From an uncultured bacterium (GTDB lineage: Bacteria > Patescibacteriota > Saccharimonadia > Saccharimonadales > Saccharimonadaceae): a stretch of DNA of 64,000 nucleotides. Location of the stretch: assembly GCA_937863415.1 (NCBI GenBank), contig CALMFC010000005.1, positions 124,001 to 188,000 of the forward strand, given 5' to 3'. Within the stretch, counting starts at the first letter, position 1. Every line of letters begins with the position of its first letter. Positions 29,521 to 60,777 of this stretch are shown piece by piece. The translations under genes and the position numbers were made by a program. The notes beneath the pieces were generated by a model. The model searched no databases, was not told the DNA's origin, and was given only the letters and a program-made list of their open reading frames with translations.

Positions 29521-29620
29521 ACCCCCTACTTTCCATTTCCTAACCCCTAATGTCATACCATCTACTATATACCAGTTGCTTCCCCCATTTCCTATTTCCC
29601 AACCCCCAACCCCCAATGGT
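29521..29620. repeat. C-rich dispersed repeat, two imperfect copies
   Basis: Two pyrimidine-rich blocks about 60 bases apart, each with runs such as CCATTTCCT and AACCCC, followed by AATGnnATACnATC. Relatives of the block occur at 35258-35297 and, inverted, at 55655-55682 and 57185-57212. The opposite strand is rich in GGG runs and might fold as a quadruplex. Confidence 0.5.
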
Positions 29621-29625
29621 ATACT
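29620..29625 (+). promoter_or_regulatory. -10 box (TATACT) of the sugar transferase gene
   Basis: TATACT, 10 bases before ATG 29636, formed at the end of the C-rich repeat. Confidence 0.45.
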
Positions 29626-31073: not shown

Positions 31074-31106
31074 TGGAATATGGAAGGTGGCTATTAGAAT
31101 ATGGCA
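31074..31106. repeat. 33-bp terminal inverted repeat, left copy
   Basis: Begins TGGAATATGGAAGG and ends TTAGAATATGGCA. It differs at only two of 33 positions from the copy at 60688-60720 and is the imperfect reverse complement of 31467-31500. The start codon of the four-helix-bundle gene lies inside it. Confidence 0.65.
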
Positions 31107-31463
31107 GATAATATCAAGTCATTCGAGGACCTGACGGTTTGGCAGGAAAGCCAGTCATTCGCCGTTGAAGTTTACAAGGTCACTAAACAATTCCCCAAGG
31201 ACGAAATCTTCGCAATGACCAGTCAATTACGACGAGCTGTCAGTTCAGTATCGGCTAATATTGCTGAAGGATTTGGCCGTGCATCTGTAAATGATAAACT
31301 ACACTTTTACACAATGGCTTACGGCTCGCTTTTAGAGGTAAAAAACTTCCTTTATCTGGCTGAGAAACTTGGTTATATTGATAAATCTGAATTAGATAAA
31401 CTTATTATTCATAGCGTTAGTTGCCAAAAATTAATAAACGCTTTCAAAGCGGGGCTAAGGTAA
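31101..31463 (+). CDS. four-helix-bundle protein (S23/IVP family)
   Basis: 120 aa. FEDLTVWQESQSFAVEVYKVT, LRRAVSSVSANIAEGFGRAS and the LEVKNFLYLAEKLGY segment are diagnostic of the four-helix-bundle proteins first found in intervening sequences of 23S rRNA and related to Avd of diversity-generating retroelements. Biochemical role unknown. The gene fills the space between two inverted copies of a 33-bp repeat: its ATG lies in the left copy and its stop is 3 bases before the right one. It interrupts a polysaccharide operon to which it has no obvious relation. Confidence 0.85.
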   Translation: MADNIKSFEDLTVWQESQSFAVEVYKVTKQFPKDEIFAMTSQLRRAVSSVSANIAEGFGRASVNDKLHFYTMAYGSLLEVKNFLYLAEKLGYIDKSELDKLIIHSVSCQKLINAFKAGLR

Positions 31464-31465
31464 TT

Positions 31466-32609
31466 ATGCCATCTTCCAATAGCCAAATTCCAATAGCCAA
31501 ACAATCGCCTCGCATAGCGATTGTAACCGACTGGTTAACCTCCATGGGCGGCCAAGAGCGTGTAACTCTTGAACTTCACAAAATCTTTCCAGAGGCTGCG
31601 ATTTATACGTCCGTATTCGACAAGGCTAATATGCCAGAATTCGATGGTATCGATGTCCGTACAACCTATCTGCAACGAATCTTGCCTAAATCGCTTCGTT
31701 ATAAACATGTATTATGGCCAGTGTTGCGTGCCTTTGCCTTTCGTAAACTAGACCTGTCAGAATTCGACATCATCATCAGCAACACTACCGCCGAGGCCAA
31801 AGCTGTTCGTAAACGCCCCGGTGCAGTCCATATCTGTAACTGCAACACGCCAATCCGTTATTACTGGAGTCACTACCAAGAGTTCAAACGTGATTTCAAT
31901 TTCGGCGCACTTAATTTCATTATTCGTCCCCTTATTCCATTCTTTGTCCGCTGGATGCGTAAACTCGACCTACAATCAGTCGAAGGCGTCGATGTATGGC
32001 TAGCTAACAGCACTGCTGTTCAAGCTCGAATCAAAAAGTACTATAACCGCAGTTCAACCGTCGTTCACCCACCTGTCGACATCGACAGGTTCGAACCAGC
32101 CCGCGTACGTAGCGATTATTATGTCGCCCTAGGCCGCCAGGTGCCCTACAAACGCATTGACCTGGCCGTTGCAGCAGCAACCGAGCTTGGACTACCACTA
32201 CGTGTTTACGGCAGTGGTGGCCAACACCAACAGCTAGTCGATATGGCAGGTCCATCAGTCCAGTTCTTTACTGATCGTTTTGGCGATGCATCAGACGCTG
32301 CTGTGGCTAGCGCACTTAACCAAGCCAAGGGGTATATATTTCCGGCCGAAGAAGATTTTGGCATCGTCCAAGTCGAAGCCCTAGCCGCTGGTGCACCCGT
32401 AATCGCCTACGGTAAAGGCGGCGCACTCGACATCGTCCAAGACGGCGAAAGTGGCGTTCTGTTTGACGAACAGACCGTCGAATCGGTCGTTAATGCCATC
32501 AAACGCGCCGAACAAATTGACTTTTTGCCAGCCACACTCCGCCGCAAATCCAAACGCTTCGACAGCAGCCTATTCAGGACCAAAATCCGCAAAATTGTTA
32601 GCGATCAAA

Positions 32610-34105: not shown

Positions 34106-35548
34106 ATGTCAGAAAAATCGCATGAACTAAAATTTAGTAAAGAACTGGCCATCAACACAACACCAATACCTGGCTTGCTAATACTTGATCTACCAGTCCA
34201 TGGTGACAATCGAGGGTGGTTCAAAGAGAACTGGAATAACGCCAAAATGTCAGCTCTCGGATTACCCGAATTTAATCCAGTTCAAAATAATATCTCTTTT
34301 AACGCCGATGCGGGAGTCACGCGTGGCATACATGCCGAACCATGGGATAAATTTATATCTGTTGGGTCGGGTAAAATATTCGGTGCTTGGGTAGACCTGC
34401 GTGAAGGTGACAGCTTTGGCAGTATTTTTACAGCTGAATTAGACCCGACCAAAGCCATATTCGTACCGCGTGGCGTCGGCAATTCTTTCCAGGCACTTGA
34501 GGACGACACTGTCTATTCTTACCTGGTTAACGACCATTGGAGTGCTGAGGCACAGAGTCAATATACATTCCTAAATCTAGCTGACGAAACCGCAGACATT
34601 GATTGGCCAATTCCACTAACCCAAGCGTCATTATCTGACAAGGACCTGGCTCATCCACGCCTGCAGGACGTCACGCCAATGAAACCAAAACGAACGCTAA
34701 TCACAGGTAGCGACGGTCAACTGGGCAAAGCTTTGCGAGTTGTATTTCCAGATGCTGAATTTACCACACGCGCCGATCTAGATATAACTGATAAAAACAT
34801 CTACACTGCTCGTAACTGGCGTCAATACGACACAATTATTAATGCGGCTGCGTATACGGATGTTGACGGTGCCGAAACACCAGAGGGACGAAGATTGTCC
34901 TGGGAGATTAATGCTCGAGCTGTTGCAAACTTGGGAAAAATTGCAACCCAATATGATATCAAACTCGTTCAACCATCTAGTGAATATGTCTTTGACGGCA
35001 GTACATCACCACACAGTGAAGATGAGCCATCTAGCCCAATTAGTGTATACGGTCAAACCAAGGCCGCCGGTGATATTGCCGCTAGCGCTGTTCCAAAACA
35101 CTACATAGTCCGCACTAGTTGGGTTGTGGGTGAAGGCAAAAACTTTGTCAACACTATGAAGTCTCGTGCCGAAAGTGGTGCCAAATCGTCAGTAGTAAAT
35201 GACCAAATTGGTCGACTAACGTTTGCGTCCGACCTAGCTCGAGCCATTAAACATTTACTAACCCCTATTTCCCATTCCCCAACCCCCATTTCCCATCCAT
35301 ATGGAACCTATAACGTGTCGAGCGACGGCGACAACGTTAGCTGGGCTGATGTTGCAGCGGATGTATATGAATTAACTGGCCACAACCGAGACGACGTAAC
35401 GGGCATTACAACCGATGAATACTATGCCAGCAAAATCGGTACTGCCCAACGACCATTACAAAGCACACTAAACCTTGATAAAATAAAGGCAACGGGTTTT
35501 GTGCCACGTGACTGGCGCGAAGCTTTAGCTGAATACTTAGATAAATAG
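34106..35548 (+). CDS. fused dTDP-4-dehydrorhamnose 3,5-epimerase / reductase
   Basis: 480 aa, two enzymes in one chain. Residues about 10-190: RmlC-type cupin (DNRGWFKENW, VTRGIHAEPW with the catalytic His, VDLREGDSFG). Residues about 198-480: RmlD-type reductase (LITGSDGQLGKAL, NAAAYTDVDGAE, YVFDGS, SVYGQTK with the Y-x3-K pair). Together they finish dTDP-L-rhamnose. The reductase contains a short extra loop LTPISHSPTPISHP, encoded by a copy of the C-rich repeat at 35258-35297, before the GTYNVSS strand. No frameshift. Confidence 0.92.
   Translation: MSEKSHELKFSKELAINTTPIPGLLILDLPVHGDNRGWFKENWNNAKMSALGLPEFNPVQNNISFNADAGVTRGIHAEPWDKFISVGSGKIFGAWVDLREGDSFGSIFTAELDPTKAIFVPRGVGNSFQALEDDTVYSYLVNDHWSAEAQSQYTFLNLADETADIDWPIPLTQASLSDKDLAHPRLQDVTPMKPKRTLITGSDGQLGKALRVVFPDAEFTTRADLDITDKNIYTARNWRQYDTIINAAAYTDVDGAETPEGRRLSWEINARAVANLGKIATQYDIKLVQPSSEYVFDGSTSPHSEDEPSSPISVYGQTKAAGDIAASAVPKHYIVRTSWVVGEGKNFVNTMKSRAESGAKSSVVNDQIGRLTFASDLARAIKHLLTPISHSPTPISHPYGTYNVSSDGDNVSWADVAADVYELTGHNRDDVTGITTDEYYASKIGTAQRPLQSTLNLDKIKATGFVPRDWREALAEYLDK
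35258..35297. repeat. C-rich dispersed repeat inside the reductase gene
   Basis: TAACCCCTATTTCCCATTCC followed by AACCCCCATTTCCCAT; same family as 29521-29620. It stays in frame and adds a Pro/Ser/His loop. Confidence 0.55.
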
Positions 35549-42772: not shown

Positions 42773-44553
42773 ACCAACTCAGAATTTCATCAACACTAAG
42801 TAGTAAGCGTATTGCTATTTTTACTTTTTTTGCCACCATTTCGGTGTTTACATCTATAGTATTAATACTACTTACCCCCCAACAGACGGCCAATGCCGTT
42901 AGTCTCGATAGCTTTAAACCCGGTAGAATTATTGACGACGCTGTTATGAGTAACAAAAATACCATGACAGAAACTGCCATACAAACCTTTTTAAAAAGTA
43001 AAGTGAGCTCATGTACTAGCAAGGGTAATAATAATTATATTAATCAACTAACAATTGTAGATAATGGTACGCGTGGCTATGTTACTGGAACAATGTTAGT
43101 TAACGGCGAGAGAGTTCCAGCCACTTGGTGGTGGAACCTTAAAGATGGCCATTTTGTATGTATGGCGGACGATACGTTTGATGGCGAAACTGCCGCACAT
43201 ATAATATGGCAAGCAGCACAAGACTATTCGATCAACCCGCAAGTGTTAATCGTGCTATTAGAGAAAGAGCAAGGACTTATATCTGACGGCTATCCCAATA
43301 ATCATCAATACGCGGCTGCAACGGGCTTCGACTGTCCCGACAACGGTAATGGATGCAGCAGTGCAAACGCTGGCTTTAAAATGCAGATTCGTAAAGCTGC
43401 AGCATTATTTCGCGAAGTGCTTGATGGTGGATGGTCTAATTACCCAGTTGGATCAAATGATATCCAATATAACCCAAACAAAAGCTGCGGCAGTAGTATT
43501 GTTACAATCGAAAACCGTGCTACGTCTGCGCTGTACCGATACACACCTTATCAACCCAATAACGAAGCGTTAGCAGCTGGTTATGGCTCTGCACTTCCAT
43601 GTGGTGCTTATGGAAACAGAAACTTCTACCTATATTTTAATGACTGGTTTGGGTCAACTTTTGCATTCATATATAGCGGCGTAGACTTCTCGACTATATT
43701 CGATGCAGACTATTACCTAAACCGATATCCAGACGTTAGAGGTGCGGTGTCATCAAGTCCAATCGACGCGTTTGACCATTTTATTAAGCACGGCATGAGC
43801 GAGGGCCGACAAGCCAGTGAACGTTTTAACGCCATATCATATAAAGATCGATACCCAGACCTACGTGCTGCTTTCGGTAACGACATAGTTAAATACGCTA
43901 TTCACTATATACTTCATGGTATGGCGGAGGGGCGTACAGCTACCGGTAATAAATTCGTGGGTGTGTCTAGCTATAAAGGTGTTGACTACTCACTCGTATA
44001 TGACTTTAACTATTACATAAATACTTACTCTGACTTGAAAGCAGCCTTCGGTACAAAGGGAGACTTACGGGCAATCGAGCATTTCGTTCAAGACGGCATG
44101 GCGGAAGGAAGGTCTGGCCGCGAGAGTTTTAACGTCATATCATATAAAGATCGATACCCAGACCTACGTGCTGCTTTCGGTAACTATTTACCCGCTTATT
44201 ACTTGCATTATATACAGTACGGTTATAAAGAGGGGCGTACAGCTACCGGTAATAAATTCGTGGGTGTGTCTAGCTATAAAGGTGTTGACTACTCACTCGT
44301 ATATGACTTTAACTATTACATAAATACTTACTCTGACTTGAAAGCAGCCTTCGGTACAAAGGGAGACTTACGGGCAATCGAGCATTTCGTTCAAGACGGC
44401 ATGGCGGAAGGAAGGTCTGGCCGCGAGAGTTTTAACGTCATATCATATAAAGATCGATACCCAGACCTACGTGCTGCTTTCGGTAACTATTTACCCGCTT
44501 ATTACTTGCATTATATACAGTACGGTTATAAAGAGGGGCGTACAGCGAACTAG
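42769..44553 (+). CDS. secreted lysozyme-like protein with ~50-aa repeats
   Basis: 594 aa. Signal peptide (1-43, QQTANA). A domain at about 45-300 with FKPGRIIDDAVMSNKNTMTETAIQTFL, the catalytic-type NPQVLIVLLEKEQGL and CPDNGNGC is like glucosaminidase/lysozyme-fold proteins of Actinobacteria. From about 305 come six repeats of about 50 aa with the phrase YPDLRAAFG ... H(F/Y)xxxGxxEGR; repeats 3-4 and 5-6 are identical because of a 303-bp DNA duplication. Probably binds or remodels a cell wall, its own or that of a host. Confidence 0.75.
   Translation: MNQLRISSTLSSKRIAIFTFFATISVFTSIVLILLTPQQTANAVSLDSFKPGRIIDDAVMSNKNTMTETAIQTFLKSKVSSCTSKGNNNYINQLTIVDNGTRGYVTGTMLVNGERVPATWWWNLKDGHFVCMADDTFDGETAAHIIWQAAQDYSINPQVLIVLLEKEQGLISDGYPNNHQYAAATGFDCPDNGNGCSSANAGFKMQIRKAAALFREVLDGGWSNYPVGSNDIQYNPNKSCGSSIVTIENRATSALYRYTPYQPNNEALAAGYGSALPCGAYGNRNFYLYFNDWFGSTFAFIYSGVDFSTIFDADYYLNRYPDVRGAVSSSPIDAFDHFIKHGMSEGRQASERFNAISYKDRYPDLRAAFGNDIVKYAIHYILHGMAEGRTATGNKFVGVSSYKGVDYSLVYDFNYYINTYSDLKAAFGTKGDLRAIEHFVQDGMAEGRSGRESFNVISYKDRYPDLRAAFGNYLPAYYLHYIQYGYKEGRTATGNKFVGVSSYKGVDYSLVYDFNYYINTYSDLKAAFGTKGDLRAIEHFVQDGMAEGRSGRESFNVISYKDRYPDLRAAFGNYLPAYYLHYIQYGYKEGRTAN
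43927..44532. repeat. exact 303-bp tandem duplication
   Basis: Copies at 43927-44229 and 44230-44532 look identical base for base; each encodes 101 aa (two 50-aa repeats). A further 14 bases repeat at the end. Length is a multiple of three, so copy number could change without loss of frame. Confidence 0.85.
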
Positions 44554-55253: not shown

Positions 55254-56339
55254 ATGAAGTTACTAGAACACGAGGCTAAAACAATTCTGTCACTGTTCAA
55301 AATTGCTGTGCCGAGTTCGGTTTTAGTGCATAAGGGCAAAACAACCGAACTCGACTTGCCTGTTGTTTTAAAATCTCAGGTTCCGATTGGCGGACGCGGC
55401 AAAGCTGGTGGAATCAAGGTCGTTAAATCGGACAAAAAGTTAAACAAAACTATTGATGATCTATTCAAATTAGATATCAAAGGCTTTATTCCACAGACAC
55501 TGTTGGCCGAAGAGTTGCTGGACATCAAACACGAATATTATGTTTCGATGATTATTGACCGAGCGACTGCGGCCATTCAGGTTGTAGCGGGGCGAGATGG
55601 TGGTGTTGAAGTGGAAAGCAACGATGCAGATAGCTATCTGACTGTCGGGTTTGGGGATTTGGAAATAGGAAATGGGAAAGCTAATTTTGATTCGGTTGGG
55701 CAGGCGCTGGCAGATTATTATGATCTGCAAGGTCAAGCATTCGTTTTGCAGGATTTGGTTGAGAATTTATATAGATGTTTTATTAAAAACGACGCTATGC
55801 TAATCGAGATTAATCCCCTAGTCTTAACTACTGACGACAAGTTGGTGGCGGGTGATTGCAAGATGGAACTGGATGACAGTGCTAGTTTTCGTCACGACTG
55901 GAAGTTCGAACAAACCGAAGCCGAGGTTAACTTTGTAACACTAGACGAACACGGCACGGTCGCAACCATAGCTAACGGCGCAGGACTAGCTATGGCGACA
56001 GTTGATGCTGTCGCAAATGCCGGTATGAAACCGGCTAACTTCCTAGACATCGGCGGCGGCGCCAATACCGAATCGGTTATGGCCGCCTTTGCACAGATCA
56101 TGGAGTATTCGCACGTCAAAACAATTGTTATTAATATATTCGCCGGTATCACGCGGTGTGATGAAGTTGCGAAAGCCATCATTGCCGCTCGCGACCAAAT
56201 GCCTGGGTTACCTAAACTATGTATTCGACTGGCTGGAACTAACTATGACGTAGCCAAAGTTTTGCTGGATAAAAATAATATCAAGCTATTACCTACCCTC
56301 GAGGCATGTATCGACCAGGCGCTGGAGTATACATCATGA
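55254..56339 (+). CDS. sucC: succinyl-CoA ligase (ADP/GDP-forming) beta subunit
   Basis: 361 aa. ATP-grasp part (1-230) with KSQVPIGGRGKAGGIKVV and LIEINPLVLTTDDKLVAGDCKMELDD, then the ligase domain with NGAGLAMATVDAV, NFLDIGGGA and INIFAGITRCDEVA. Makes ATP from succinyl-CoA or a similar acyl-CoA. An extra loop (GFGDLEIGNGKANFD) is encoded by an inverted C-rich repeat copy. Its stop overlaps sucD. Confidence 0.9.
   Translation: MKLLEHEAKTILSLFKIAVPSSVLVHKGKTTELDLPVVLKSQVPIGGRGKAGGIKVVKSDKKLNKTIDDLFKLDIKGFIPQTLLAEELLDIKHEYYVSMIIDRATAAIQVVAGRDGGVEVESNDADSYLTVGFGDLEIGNGKANFDSVGQALADYYDLQGQAFVLQDLVENLYRCFIKNDAMLIEINPLVLTTDDKLVAGDCKMELDDSASFRHDWKFEQTEAEVNFVTLDEHGTVATIANGAGLAMATVDAVANAGMKPANFLDIGGGANTESVMAAFAQIMEYSHVKTIVINIFAGITRCDEVAKAIIAARDQMPGLPKLCIRLAGTNYDVAKVLLDKNNIKLLPTLEACIDQALEYTS
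55655..55682. repeat. C-rich repeat family, inverted copy inside sucC
   Basis: GGGGATTTGGAAATAGGAAA followed by TGGGAAAG; the reverse complement matches the CCCATTTCCTATTTCC core at 29581. In frame. Confidence 0.45.
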
Positions 56340-57196
56340 GCCCAGAGTTATTTAATGCTAGGAACGTCATCGTCCAGGGTATCACCGGATCGCACGGTAC
56401 GTTCCATGCCCGCGCCATGGTTGCCGCCGGTACAAACATCATTGCTGGAACTTCGCCGAACAAAGCGGGCGAGTCGGTCGACGGTATTCCGGTCTATAAA
56501 TCCGTTGCCGATATTCAGGCAGATCATGTGGTCGATATATCAGTAATATTTGTACCAGCAAGGTTTGCTAAATCTGCCATTTTAGAAGCAGTTGACTCGA
56601 AAGTACCACTAATAGTATGTATTACAGAAGGTATTCCAATTCATGATATGTTGCATATTCGACAACATCTAATAGGGAAGTCCTCGACGCTAATTGGACC
56701 TAACTCCCCCGGTGTTTTAATGCCCGGTGTTAATAAATTGGGTATTATTCCAGCTAAATTAGGCCTGCCTGGCAAGGCCGCAATCGTCAGCCGTTCGGGT
56801 ACACTCACCTACGAAGCCGTTGCAGGTCTAACCGGTCGTGGAATTGGTCAGAAATACGTGATTGGCATCGGTGGCGACCAAGTACGCGGCACTGGATTCA
56901 TCGAATGTCTGGATCTGTTCCAAAACGACCCTGATGTTGATCAAATTATTATGGTCGGTGAGATTGGCGGAACCGACGAGCAAGCGGCTGCCGAACATAT
57001 TGCTGAGAACATTACCAAACCAGTCTACGCTTACATAGCCGGTCATCACGCCCCTGTTGGCGTCCAGCTAGGCCATGCTGGCGCAATTCTAGGCAGCGCC
57101 GATGAATCTGCCAGCGCCAAGACTAAAGCGCTACGTGATGCTGGTGTAACCGTCAGCGGTAGTATTACGGAGTTAATAACTAGCGTTAGGGATTAG
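56336..57196 (+). CDS. sucD: succinyl-CoA ligase alpha subunit
   Basis: 286 aa, normal length. VQGITGSHGTFHARAMVAAGTN (CoA-binding Rossmann part), IGPNSPGVL, and the phosphohistidine loop LGHAGAIL. ATGA overlap with sucC. No other citric-acid-cycle gene is in the window. Confidence 0.92.
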   Translation: MSPELFNARNVIVQGITGSHGTFHARAMVAAGTNIIAGTSPNKAGESVDGIPVYKSVADIQADHVVDISVIFVPARFAKSAILEAVDSKVPLIVCITEGIPIHDMLHIRQHLIGKSSTLIGPNSPGVLMPGVNKLGIIPAKLGLPGKAAIVSRSGTLTYEAVAGLTGRGIGQKYVIGIGGDQVRGTGFIECLDLFQNDPDVDQIIMVGEIGGTDEQAAAEHIAENITKPVYAYIAGHHAPVGVQLGHAGAILGSADESASAKTKALRDAGVTVSGSITELITSVRD

Positions 57197-57212
57197 GGTT
57201 TGGGAAATAGGT
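57185..57212. repeat. C-rich repeat family, inverted copy after sucD
   Basis: TTAGGGATTAGGGTTTGGGA and AATAGG cover the sucD stop codon and the spacer. Reverse complement resembles CCTATTTCCCAAACCC of the family. Confidence 0.4.
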
Positions 57213-59618: not shown

Positions 59619-60704
59619 ATGCACATAGCAATCGACGCTCGAATTATAAATAGCTCAACTGGACGCTACATCGAACGTCTGCTACATTATTTGCAAAAGA
59701 TAGACAAAACTAATAAATATACGGTTTTAGTCACCAAAAAGGATGAAAAGTTTTGGAAACCGACCAATAAAAACTTCAAGACCAAAGTGGCTGACTTTGC
59801 GCAGTATTCATTTGCCGAACAAATTGGGTTCAAAAAACTACTTGACGACCTAAAGCCTGATTTGGTACATTTTTGCATGCCACAACAACCAGTCATGTAT
59901 AGAGGCAAACGAGTAACAACTTTTCATGACATGACGTTAGTCAAGGTCGTTATGCCTGACAAAAACCCGGTTGTATATAGGGTTAAGCAGTTTGTTGGTA
60001 ATTTCGTTTTCAGGCGAGTTGCCCGTACATCTAGCCACATTATCGTTCCAACTCAGTTCACCAAAGACGAGTTAGTTGCCTTTACGGGTACACCTGCCGA
60101 TAAAATTACGATTACATACGAAGCCGCCGATAAAACCGATGGCTCACTGAAAAAATACGATCACCCATTCAAACAATTTATCATGTACGTTGGCCAGCAG
60201 GCTGATTACAAAAATATCAAACGCCTGGGTGACGCTCATCAACAACTGCTAGCTAAATATCCCGACCTAGGATTAATATTGGTTGGACGCAAAGACAAAA
60301 CTGCCACCATGAACGAAAAATATTTTAATGACAATAATTACAAAAATATTTTGTTCACTGATTTCATACCTGATTCGCAGCGTGACTGGCTGTACAAAAA
60401 CACAGACGCGTATATATTTCCGTCTCTGATGGAAGGTTTTGGTCTGCCGGGCCTGGAGGCTATGACATACGGCGCGCCGGTTGTTAGCAGTAGCGCCACT
60501 TGCCTGCCTGAAGTTTATGGCAAAGCCGCCAATTACTTTGACCCTAGCGACGTCGACGACATCGCCCGCGCTATCGATGAAGTCTTGTCGAACAAAACTC
60601 GTCGAAATGAATTAATTAAATTAGGCTACGAACAAATCAAAAAATACTCGTGGGAACGCATGGCCAAACAGACACACGCTATATATATGGAATATGGAAG
60701 TTAG
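59619..60704 (+). CDS. family 4 glycosyltransferase, mannosyltransferase-like
   Basis: 361 aa. IAIDARIINSSTGRYIERLLHYL, FHDMTLVKVV, YVGQQADYKNIKRL and SLMEGFGLPGLEAMTYGAPVVSS (donor site E-x7-E). One base after GtrA. The last codons and stop are formed by the left repeat at 60688-60720, suggesting that the true end was replaced by the insertion. Confidence 0.87.
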   Translation: MHIAIDARIINSSTGRYIERLLHYLQKIDKTNKYTVLVTKKDEKFWKPTNKNFKTKVADFAQYSFAEQIGFKKLLDDLKPDLVHFCMPQQPVMYRGKRVTTFHDMTLVKVVMPDKNPVVYRVKQFVGNFVFRRVARTSSHIIVPTQFTKDELVAFTGTPADKITITYEAADKTDGSLKKYDHPFKQFIMYVGQQADYKNIKRLGDAHQQLLAKYPDLGLILVGRKDKTATMNEKYFNDNNYKNILFTDFIPDSQRDWLYKNTDAYIFPSLMEGFGLPGLEAMTYGAPVVSSSATCLPEVYGKAANYFDPSDVDDIARAIDEVLSNKTRRNELIKLGYEQIKKYSWERMAKQTHAIYMEYGS

Positions 60705-60777
60705 CTATTAGAATATGGCAAATTACTGAAAGCTAAACGTACTCTGCCACCTTCCAAATTCCAAATTCTATATTCCA
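60688..60777. repeat. pair of 33-bp inverted repeats without a gene between
   Basis: Left arm 60688-60720 (31 of 33 bases as at 31074-31106), right arm 60745-60777 inverted (24 of 33 paired), 24 bases between. It looks like an empty or miniature version of the cassette around the four-helix-bundle gene. It might also work as a terminator of the glycosyltransferase operon. Confidence 0.6.

What the first reader, a model, noticed from the sequence alone, without database searches (positions are those of the whole stretch)
31074..31500. Four-helix-bundle gene framed by 33-bp inverted repeats: a possible mini mobile cassette
The gene (31101-31463) fits exactly between two inverted repeats; its ATG is inside the left one and its stop is 3 bases before the right one. 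The left repeat matches another locus at 31 of 33 positions. Proteins of this family were first found in intervening sequences of 23S rRNA, which also have complementary ends. Here the unit sits between protein-coding genes and even supplies the N-terminus of the next glycosyltransferase. No transposase or reverse transcriptase is near, so the way it spreads would be new.
Basis: partly seen in the sequence, partly recalled or inferred. Interest (0 to 1): 0.78.

Follow-up and report, generated by a model that had tools for sequence, protein, structure and literature searches.

The report
Self-spreading gene framed by seven-letter repeats
A tiny gene in this genome sits between mirrored runs of a seven-letter DNA word; the same arrangement, with a different word at nearly every place, occurs in at least 15 phyla of bacteria and archaea and behaves like an overlooked kind of mobile DNA with no known transposition enzyme.

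Summary
The gene at 31101-31463 is a 23S_rRNA_IVP (S23) four-helix protein. Its "33-bp inverted repeats" are short tandem arrays with a 7-nt period. Across 157 S23 loci from Patescibacteria, Bacteroidota, Bacillota, Pseudomonadota, Planctomycetota, Chloroflexota, archaea and others (cyanobacterial plasmids checked separately), most genes are bracketed by inverted tandem arrays of period 7 (sometimes 8 or 9), about 4-5 units long. The unit differs from locus to locus but matches on both sides. Its sequence and period track the protein's phylogeny. DGR Avd genes, which share the fold, lack such arrays. Gene-less copies are scattered through host genomes, as single arrays or inverted pairs; one congener has 61 matches to this unit. 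Four occupied/empty plasmid pairs and the window's own site show that array-gene-array is what is inserted. No site duplication is evident; 13-32 bp of target are lost at the two clean sites. The window genome has no RVT_1 reverse transcriptase. Unexplained heptamer repeats of Xanthomonas, Nostoc, Beggiatoaceae and the Coxiella 23S IVS appear to belong here. Dispersal is well supported. That the S23 pentamer binds the heptads and drives the spread is my best inference, unproven.

The parts
31074..31106 (+). Left heptad array (TGGAATA TGGAAGG TGGCTAT TAGAATA TGGCA); contains the start codon of the S23 gene
   Evidence: period 7 shown across the family
31101..31463 (+). S23 / 23S_rRNA_IVP four-helix-bundle gene (120 aa)
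   Evidence: Pfam PF05635 E=1.2e-35; AlphaFold model pLDDT 95.8; Foldseek 2GSC TM 0.92
31467..31499 (-). Right heptad array, inverted relative to the left; also encodes the N-terminus of the downstream glycosyltransferase (ATG at 31466)
31502..31523 (.). Palindrome CAATCGCctcgcataGCGATTG directly outside the right arm, made of the start of the glycosyltransferase gene; perfect palindromes at the same place in G014, G019, G024, absent from empty sites
60688..60777 (.). Gene-less mini-element: left arm 60688-60720, 24-nt spacer, right arm 60745-60777; folds as a hairpin (z -4.2)
29578..29621 (.). Second heptad family (type B, CCCATTT/CCCAACC) before and within the start of the sugar-transferase ORF
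35262..35298 (.). Type B array inserted in frame in the RmlD part of ORF 34106-35548; other species carry type A, type D or B+D arrays, or nothing, at this same loop
55642..55682 (.). Type B array in frame inside the sucC-like ORF 55254-56339
57181..57211 (.). Type B array remnant at the end of the sucD-like ORF

Best explanation
The gene and its two arms are one copy of a widespread minimal mobile element: an S23 (IVP) gene bracketed by inverted tandem arrays of a 7-nt unit (8 or 9 nt in some lineages). Gene-less inverted pairs and single arrays are its non-autonomous offspring. Proposed mechanism, in steps. (1) Shown: each element has its own unit, the same on both sides, and unit and period track the protein's phylogeny. 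(2) Inferred: the S23 protein, a pentameric ring in its solved relatives, grips a single-stranded array, roughly one unit per subunit and 4-5 units per ring, in DNA or RNA. (3) Inferred: holding both arms of a folded-back copy, it helps place that copy at junctions between genes by host replication or repair with template switching, because no site duplication is evident and short target stretches are lost. (4) Shown: surviving sites lie between cistrons or in frame in permissive loops; the arms then serve as start, stop or N-terminal codons. (5) Inferred: folded arms around the start codon may also let the protein regulate its own translation.
For: Period: an array of lag 7 (>=15/21) in 55% of upstream and 57% of downstream flanks of 157 loci versus 8.5% of 754 control flanks in the same loci, 0.4% of random windows of the own genome and 0 of 9 DGR Avd loci. 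Left and right periods agree in 92.7% versus 74.9% shuffled, p=2e-4. Inverted match score median 14 versus 7 for shuffled partners and 7 for direct orientation. Own partner array ranks in the top 5% in 76% of loci with clear arrays on both sides. Covariation: Mantel r=0.205, p=5e-4, unchanged after GC; period changes on the protein tree 16 versus 21.0 shuffled, p=0.004; sister pairs share units. Dispersal: type A unit has 61 matches in G024, 10 in G000, 3 in G014, 0-3 in most others, reversed control 0-1; gene-less inverted pairs; 34 period-7 arrays in the own genome versus 0-1 at periods 5, 8, 10, 11 and 13; TAGGCAR arrays 75, 15 and 10 matches in the three genomes whose gene has that unit versus 3 in total in 15 others. 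Empty sites: window junction; four plasmid pairs including Picosynechococcus 7003/7002 and Anabaena 90/Dolichospermum. Purifying selection, dN/dS about 0.03-0.16 where estimable. Pentamer: 2GSC and 2RLD each have five chains; 2GSC described as a homopentameric toroid. No RVT_1 match in the genome.
Against: Nothing shows that S23 binds heptads or moves anything. Covariation is real but weak (r 0.2). Some genomes have many arrays without a matching gene: types B, C and D in G000, G095 with 34 matches of TAGTKKG although its one strong S23 gene carries a TAGTAAC-type unit (a prediction of mine that failed), and G023 with 20 type A matches and no gene found. Arrays could spread by another route with S23 as a passenger or regulator. 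No clear target-site duplication, so the ends of the moving unit are not exactly fixed.
Confidence: 0.66

Rival explanations
1. S23 is a ring-shaped regulator that binds heptad arrays in RNA or DNA (as TRAP binds its triplets) and is not a mobility factor; arrays spread by other means and are kept as its binding sites.
For: Arrays sit at starts and ends of genes and the S23 start codon lies in the left arm. Covariation and pentameric relatives fit binding. An arm-like solo array supplies the start codon of a grpE-like gene. The TAACTGA paper suggested a translational role for its repeats (PMC4679880).
Against: Occupied/empty sites show gene plus both arrays entering as a unit. Gene-less pairs with convergent arms and unrelated interiors, many copies in one species and few in congeners, look like spread rather than kept regulation.
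Confidence: 0.2
2. The arrays are ordinary simple-sequence repeats made by polymerase slippage (or G-quadruplex sequences), and S23 genes merely lie near them.
For: Heptamers are known to be over-represented in some genomes, and some units are G-rich and form quadruplexes in vitro (PMC4692102).
Against: Slippage does not explain inversion, equal units and periods on both sides, covariation with the protein, periods of 8 and 9, absence at Avd loci, or restriction of a unit to carriers. Many units are not G-rich.
Confidence: 0.03
3. The element is moved in trans by an unlinked transposase, RAYT or reverse transcriptase, so it is a MITE-like passenger of a known machine.
For: MITE-like look of the gene-less pairs; REPINs are moved by RAYTs (PMC3116915); Avd, of the same fold, works with a reverse transcriptase.
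Against: No RVT_1 match in the 99.99% complete own genome. Units differ at nearly every locus and follow the S23 protein, not a shared enzyme. No clear target-site duplication. Other transposase families in the genome were not searched.
Confidence: 0.1

Closest known systems
23S rRNA intervening sequences (IVS) with S23p ORF (Leptospira, Coxiella)
   Same: Same protein family; complementary ends; in Coxiella three to four tandem heptamers (GACAGAT) stand directly before the ORF (PMC4990558).
   Different: Here between protein genes, not in an rRNA helix; gene-less copies are dispersed; units differ by locus.
REPIN-RAYT system
   Same: A gene flanked by the repeats it is linked to, plus dispersed inverted doublets without the gene (PMC3116915).
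   Different: The protein is a four-helix S23 protein, not an HUH tyrosine transposase; the repeats are tandem 7-mers, not imperfect palindromes.
Heptanucleotide repeats: STRR of Calothrix, GGGGA(C/T)T of Nostoc, GGGAATC of Xanthomonas, TAACTGA of Beggiatoaceae
   Same: Same period and intergenic placing; 70-75 convergent pairs in Xanthomonas (PMC4692102); S23 genes with GGGAATC/GGGATTC arms found here in Xanthomonas relatives and with GGGAGTA arms in Nostoc.
   Different: The papers left origin and function open and did not mention S23 genes in the passages searched.
Avd of diversity-generating retroelements
   Same: Same fold, TM about 0.78.
   Different: No RT, template repeat or variable repeat here; Avd loci of congeners have no heptad arrays.
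'23S_rRNA_IVP' listed as CRISPR-associated (PMC3936711, PMC10910872)
   Same: Same family in cas operons.
   Different: The cases examined are insertions into cas operons: Picosynechococcus 7003 and Anabaena 90 have it, relatives at the same junction do not.

Membership tests
23S_rRNA_IVP / S23 protein family (PF05635) | Sequence match to the family model | tested here: met
   E=1.2e-35, 122 bits versus cut-off 33.8
23S_rRNA_IVP / S23 protein family (PF05635) | Four-helix bundle fold | tested here: met
   pLDDT 95.8, four helices; 2GSC TM 0.92
23S_rRNA_IVP / S23 protein family (PF05635) | Homopentamer | not testable with these tools
   Solved relatives have five chains; assembly of this protein not modelled
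23S rRNA intervening sequence | Located inside a 23S rRNA gene | tested here: not met
   Lies between a sugar transferase and a glycosyltransferase
23S rRNA intervening sequence | Complementary ends around an S23 ORF | tested here: met
REPIN-RAYT | Linked HUH tyrosine transposase (RAYT) | tested here: not met
   The only gene between the arms is S23; the rest of the genome was not searched for RAYTs
REPIN-RAYT | Dispersed inverted doublets of the repeat | tested here: met
REPIN-RAYT | Repeat is a single imperfect palindrome | tested here: not met
   Repeat is a tandem array of 7-9 nt units
Classical IS/transposon or MITE | Target-site duplication | tested here: not met
   Four occupied/empty pairs: no evident duplication, 13 and 32 bp of target lost at the two clean sites; the pairs are not identical strains
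Classical IS/transposon or MITE | Transposase gene between the ends | tested here: not met
   Only the S23 gene
Diversity-generating retroelement Avd | Linked reverse transcriptase | tested here: not met
   No RVT_1 match in the genome
Heptanucleotide repeats (STRR and similar) | Tandem 7-nt units, dispersed, mostly intergenic | tested here: met
   34 arrays in the own genome; several lie inside ORFs; the intergenic share was not counted

The most novel reading that the evidence does not exclude
A domain-wide class of minimal mobile DNA whose only protein is a non-enzymatic S23 ring that recognises its own tandem heptads, one unit per subunit, and drives their spread without any transposase, recombinase or reverse transcriptase; each element lineage evolves a private seven-letter code. 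It would account for the scattered heptamer repeats of bacteria and for the 23S rRNA intervening sequences.
Probability: 0.5. Interest if true: 0.95.

Novelty: categorically new. Interest (0 to 1): 0.88.

Why it matters
It gives a genomic role to a protein family (PF05635) that is widespread in bacteria, has solved structures and has no known function. It offers one explanation for several unexplained observations: 23S rRNA intervening sequences with S23 ORFs, STRR and GGGAATC/GGGGATT/TAACTGA heptamers, and 'CRISPR-associated' IVP genes. If S23 drives the spread, it is mobility without a known enzyme. If it only binds, it is a sequence-specific ring with a freely evolving 7-nt code, useful as a nucleic-acid binder. 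Either way the question can be tested with one small protein and one oligonucleotide.

Tried and rejected
Hairpins next to the arrays as a target signal: perfect stems are no commoner outside arrays than at control sites; the palindrome at the window's own site is therefore reported as an oddity only. A blind prediction that G095's S23 gene would carry TAGTTKG arms failed. Phage origin: no match in 50,697 phage records. Terminator reading: rejected, arms are period-7 arrays. Orthologous empty sites for G024 mini-elements against G000: genomes too rearranged for clean junctions. Two plasmid copies in Calothrix NIES-22 share their flanks, so they say nothing on mobility. The window's own locus is among the weaker ones by simple period score (joint 24) because its unit alternates between two forms.

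Full report
1. What was checked. The ORF at 31101-31463 is a 23S_rRNA_IVP (S23) protein (E=1.2e-35). It stands between inverted arms at 31074-31106 and 31467-31499, its ATG inside the left arm, its stop 3 bases before the right arm. The left arm recurs at 60688-60720 (31/33), where a matching right arm follows at 60745-60777 with no gene between: a gene-less mini-element that folds as a hairpin (z -4.2). The own genome holds one S23 gene, four near copies of the left arm and ten matches to the array unit.

2. The arms are heptad arrays. Read in sevens, the left arm is TGGAATA TGGAAGG TGGCTAT TAGAATA TGGCA. To see whether this is general, S23 loci were gathered by protein similarity only, so without selecting on the DNA around them: 28 congeners, 240 genomes of the phylum, 80 named genome contigs from many phyla, further stretches and, as an independent set, 200 genomes of one proteobacterial order.

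3. Statistics. In 157 loci, a lag-7 array is found in 55% of upstream and 57% of downstream flanks against 8.5% of 754 control flanks of other ORFs in the same loci; lag 8 is next, other lags are near zero. The joint best period is 7 in 123, 8 in 23 and 9 in 6 loci. Where both sides have an array (96 loci) their periods agree in 92.7% against 74.9% when shuffled (p=2e-4). The two sides match as inverted repeats (median score 14) and not as direct repeats (7) or with other loci's partners (7). Unit similarity is 0.72 within and 0.49 between loci. There are more than 60 different heptamers; TAG is in 49% of them against 22% expected from composition. Arrays are mostly 4-5 units long (median 4.4). 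In the independent proteobacterial set period 7 was best in 21 of 29 loci. Negative controls: 9 DGR Avd loci, same fold, none with arrays; random windows of the own genome 0.4%.

4. The unit follows the protein. Unit similarity rises with protein identity (Mantel r=0.205, p=5e-4, n=117, unchanged after correction for GC). The period changes 16 times on the protein tree against 21.0 for shuffled labels (p=0.004), and sister pairs share units (0.56 against 0.48 for random pairs). Different S23 genes in one genome can carry different units (e.g. G049: TAGTTGG, TAGTTTG, CAGTAAT, CGAATCA). The protein is under purifying selection (dN/dS about 0.03-0.16 where dS could be estimated).

5. Dispersal. 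The own genome (847,504 bp, read in stretches) has 34 period-7 arrays, falling into about four families, against 0-1 at periods 5, 8, 10, 11 and 13; only one family has a gene there now. The type A unit has 61 matches in G024, 20 in G023, 10 in G000, 3 in G014, and few or none elsewhere in the genus; the reversed pattern has 0-1. Many G024 copies are gene-less inverted pairs with unrelated interiors. TAGGCAR arrays: 75, 15 and 10 matches in the Mesorhizobium, Bosea and Rhizobium genomes whose S23 genes carry that unit, 3 in total in 15 others. At one loop of rmlD four congeners carry four different in-frame inserts (types B, A, D, and B plus D), six carry none.

6. Empty and occupied sites. 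At the window's junction G000, G014 and G024 have the type A element, G019 a different S23 gene with type B arms at the same point, and G001, G002, G009, G022 and G025 a clean junction. On plasmids, array-gene-array units are present in one and absent in the other of Picosynechococcus 7003/7002 (cmr2|cmr3), Anabaena 90/Dolichospermum UHCC 0315A (cas6|cas4, flanks 98-99.5% identical), Calothrix 7716/NIES-4105 and Nostoc edaphicum/Calothrix NIES-4105 (nrdB|nrdA). The difference starts and ends at or within a few bases of the arrays in the clearest cases; 32 and 13 bp of spacer are replaced in two of them; no duplication is evident. In the other two pairs the empty spacer also differs, so they fix the boundary less well.

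7. Protein. The model (pLDDT 95.8) matches XCC0516 of X. campestris (2GSC, TM 0.92) and BT_0352 (2RLD), both five-chain entries, and more remotely Avd (TM about 0.78). In Xanthomonas relatives the S23 gene lies between accB-like and accC-like genes with GGGATTC/GGGAATC arms; the N-terminus of XCC0516 (NRESAQRPHERL) reads like such an array (AAT CGG GAA TCG), so it very probably sits in the GGGAATC repeats described without explanation in that species. This last step is inference; the X. campestris locus itself was not read.

8. Mechanism. Shown: architecture, matching of both sides, tracking with the protein, dispersal, empty sites, no RVT_1 reverse transcriptase in the genome. Inferred: the ring binds one unit per subunit (period 7-9 nt, 4-5 units, pentamer), brings both arms together, and a folded-back copy is placed by host replication or repair. 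The main rival is a pure regulator whose binding sites spread otherwise.

9. Known or new. The literature searched (open PMC only) has the pieces apart: Coxiella IVS heptamers (PMC4990558), Xanthomonas/Nostoc heptamers (PMC4692102), TAACTGA repeats (PMC4679880), IVP genes in cas loci (PMC3936711, PMC10910872), REPINs (PMC3116915). No paper found links S23 genes to heptad arrays as a general element. Subscription journals were not searchable, so prior description there cannot be excluded.

10. Limits. No binding or movement was observed. Covariation is modest and host phylogeny was controlled only through GC and the protein tree. Some genomes have many arrays and no matching gene, and one prediction failed (G095).

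Noticed in passing
window 31502-31523; L059, L061, L052, L058: A (near-)perfect palindrome built from the first codons of the glycosyltransferase stands outside the right arm in all four occupied genomes, with species-specific matching halves, and is absent from empty sites; G023 has it without an element. Looks like an inverted copy of the target.
   Followed up: partly
L006-L014 (G005, G010, G018, G019, G020, G024): Weak PF05635 hits in congeners look like Avd genes next to reverse-transcriptase-like genes and near-duplicate variable-repeat-like stretches: probably diversity-generating retroelements.
   Followed up: partly
G000:C5, C6, C13, C14: Two further heptad families (GTGAATT/GAAAATT and GGTAGGT/TAGATGG) are scattered through the genome with no gene of their own left.
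   Followed up: partly
G000:C5:52848-52880: A solo left arm supplies the start codon of a grpE-like gene.
   Followed up: no
window 43774-44546: Three tandem copies of a 303-nt unit (80-96% alike), probably a protein repeat.
   Followed up: no
L027 and L045: Two elements in different families of host sit directly before prepilin-like genes (GF[ST][LM]VE), their right arm reading into the leader region.
   Followed up: no
L269, L272: S23 genes inside cas6-cas4 and cmr2-cmr3; relatives lack them, so listing IVP as CRISPR-associated may reflect insertion only.
   Followed up: yes
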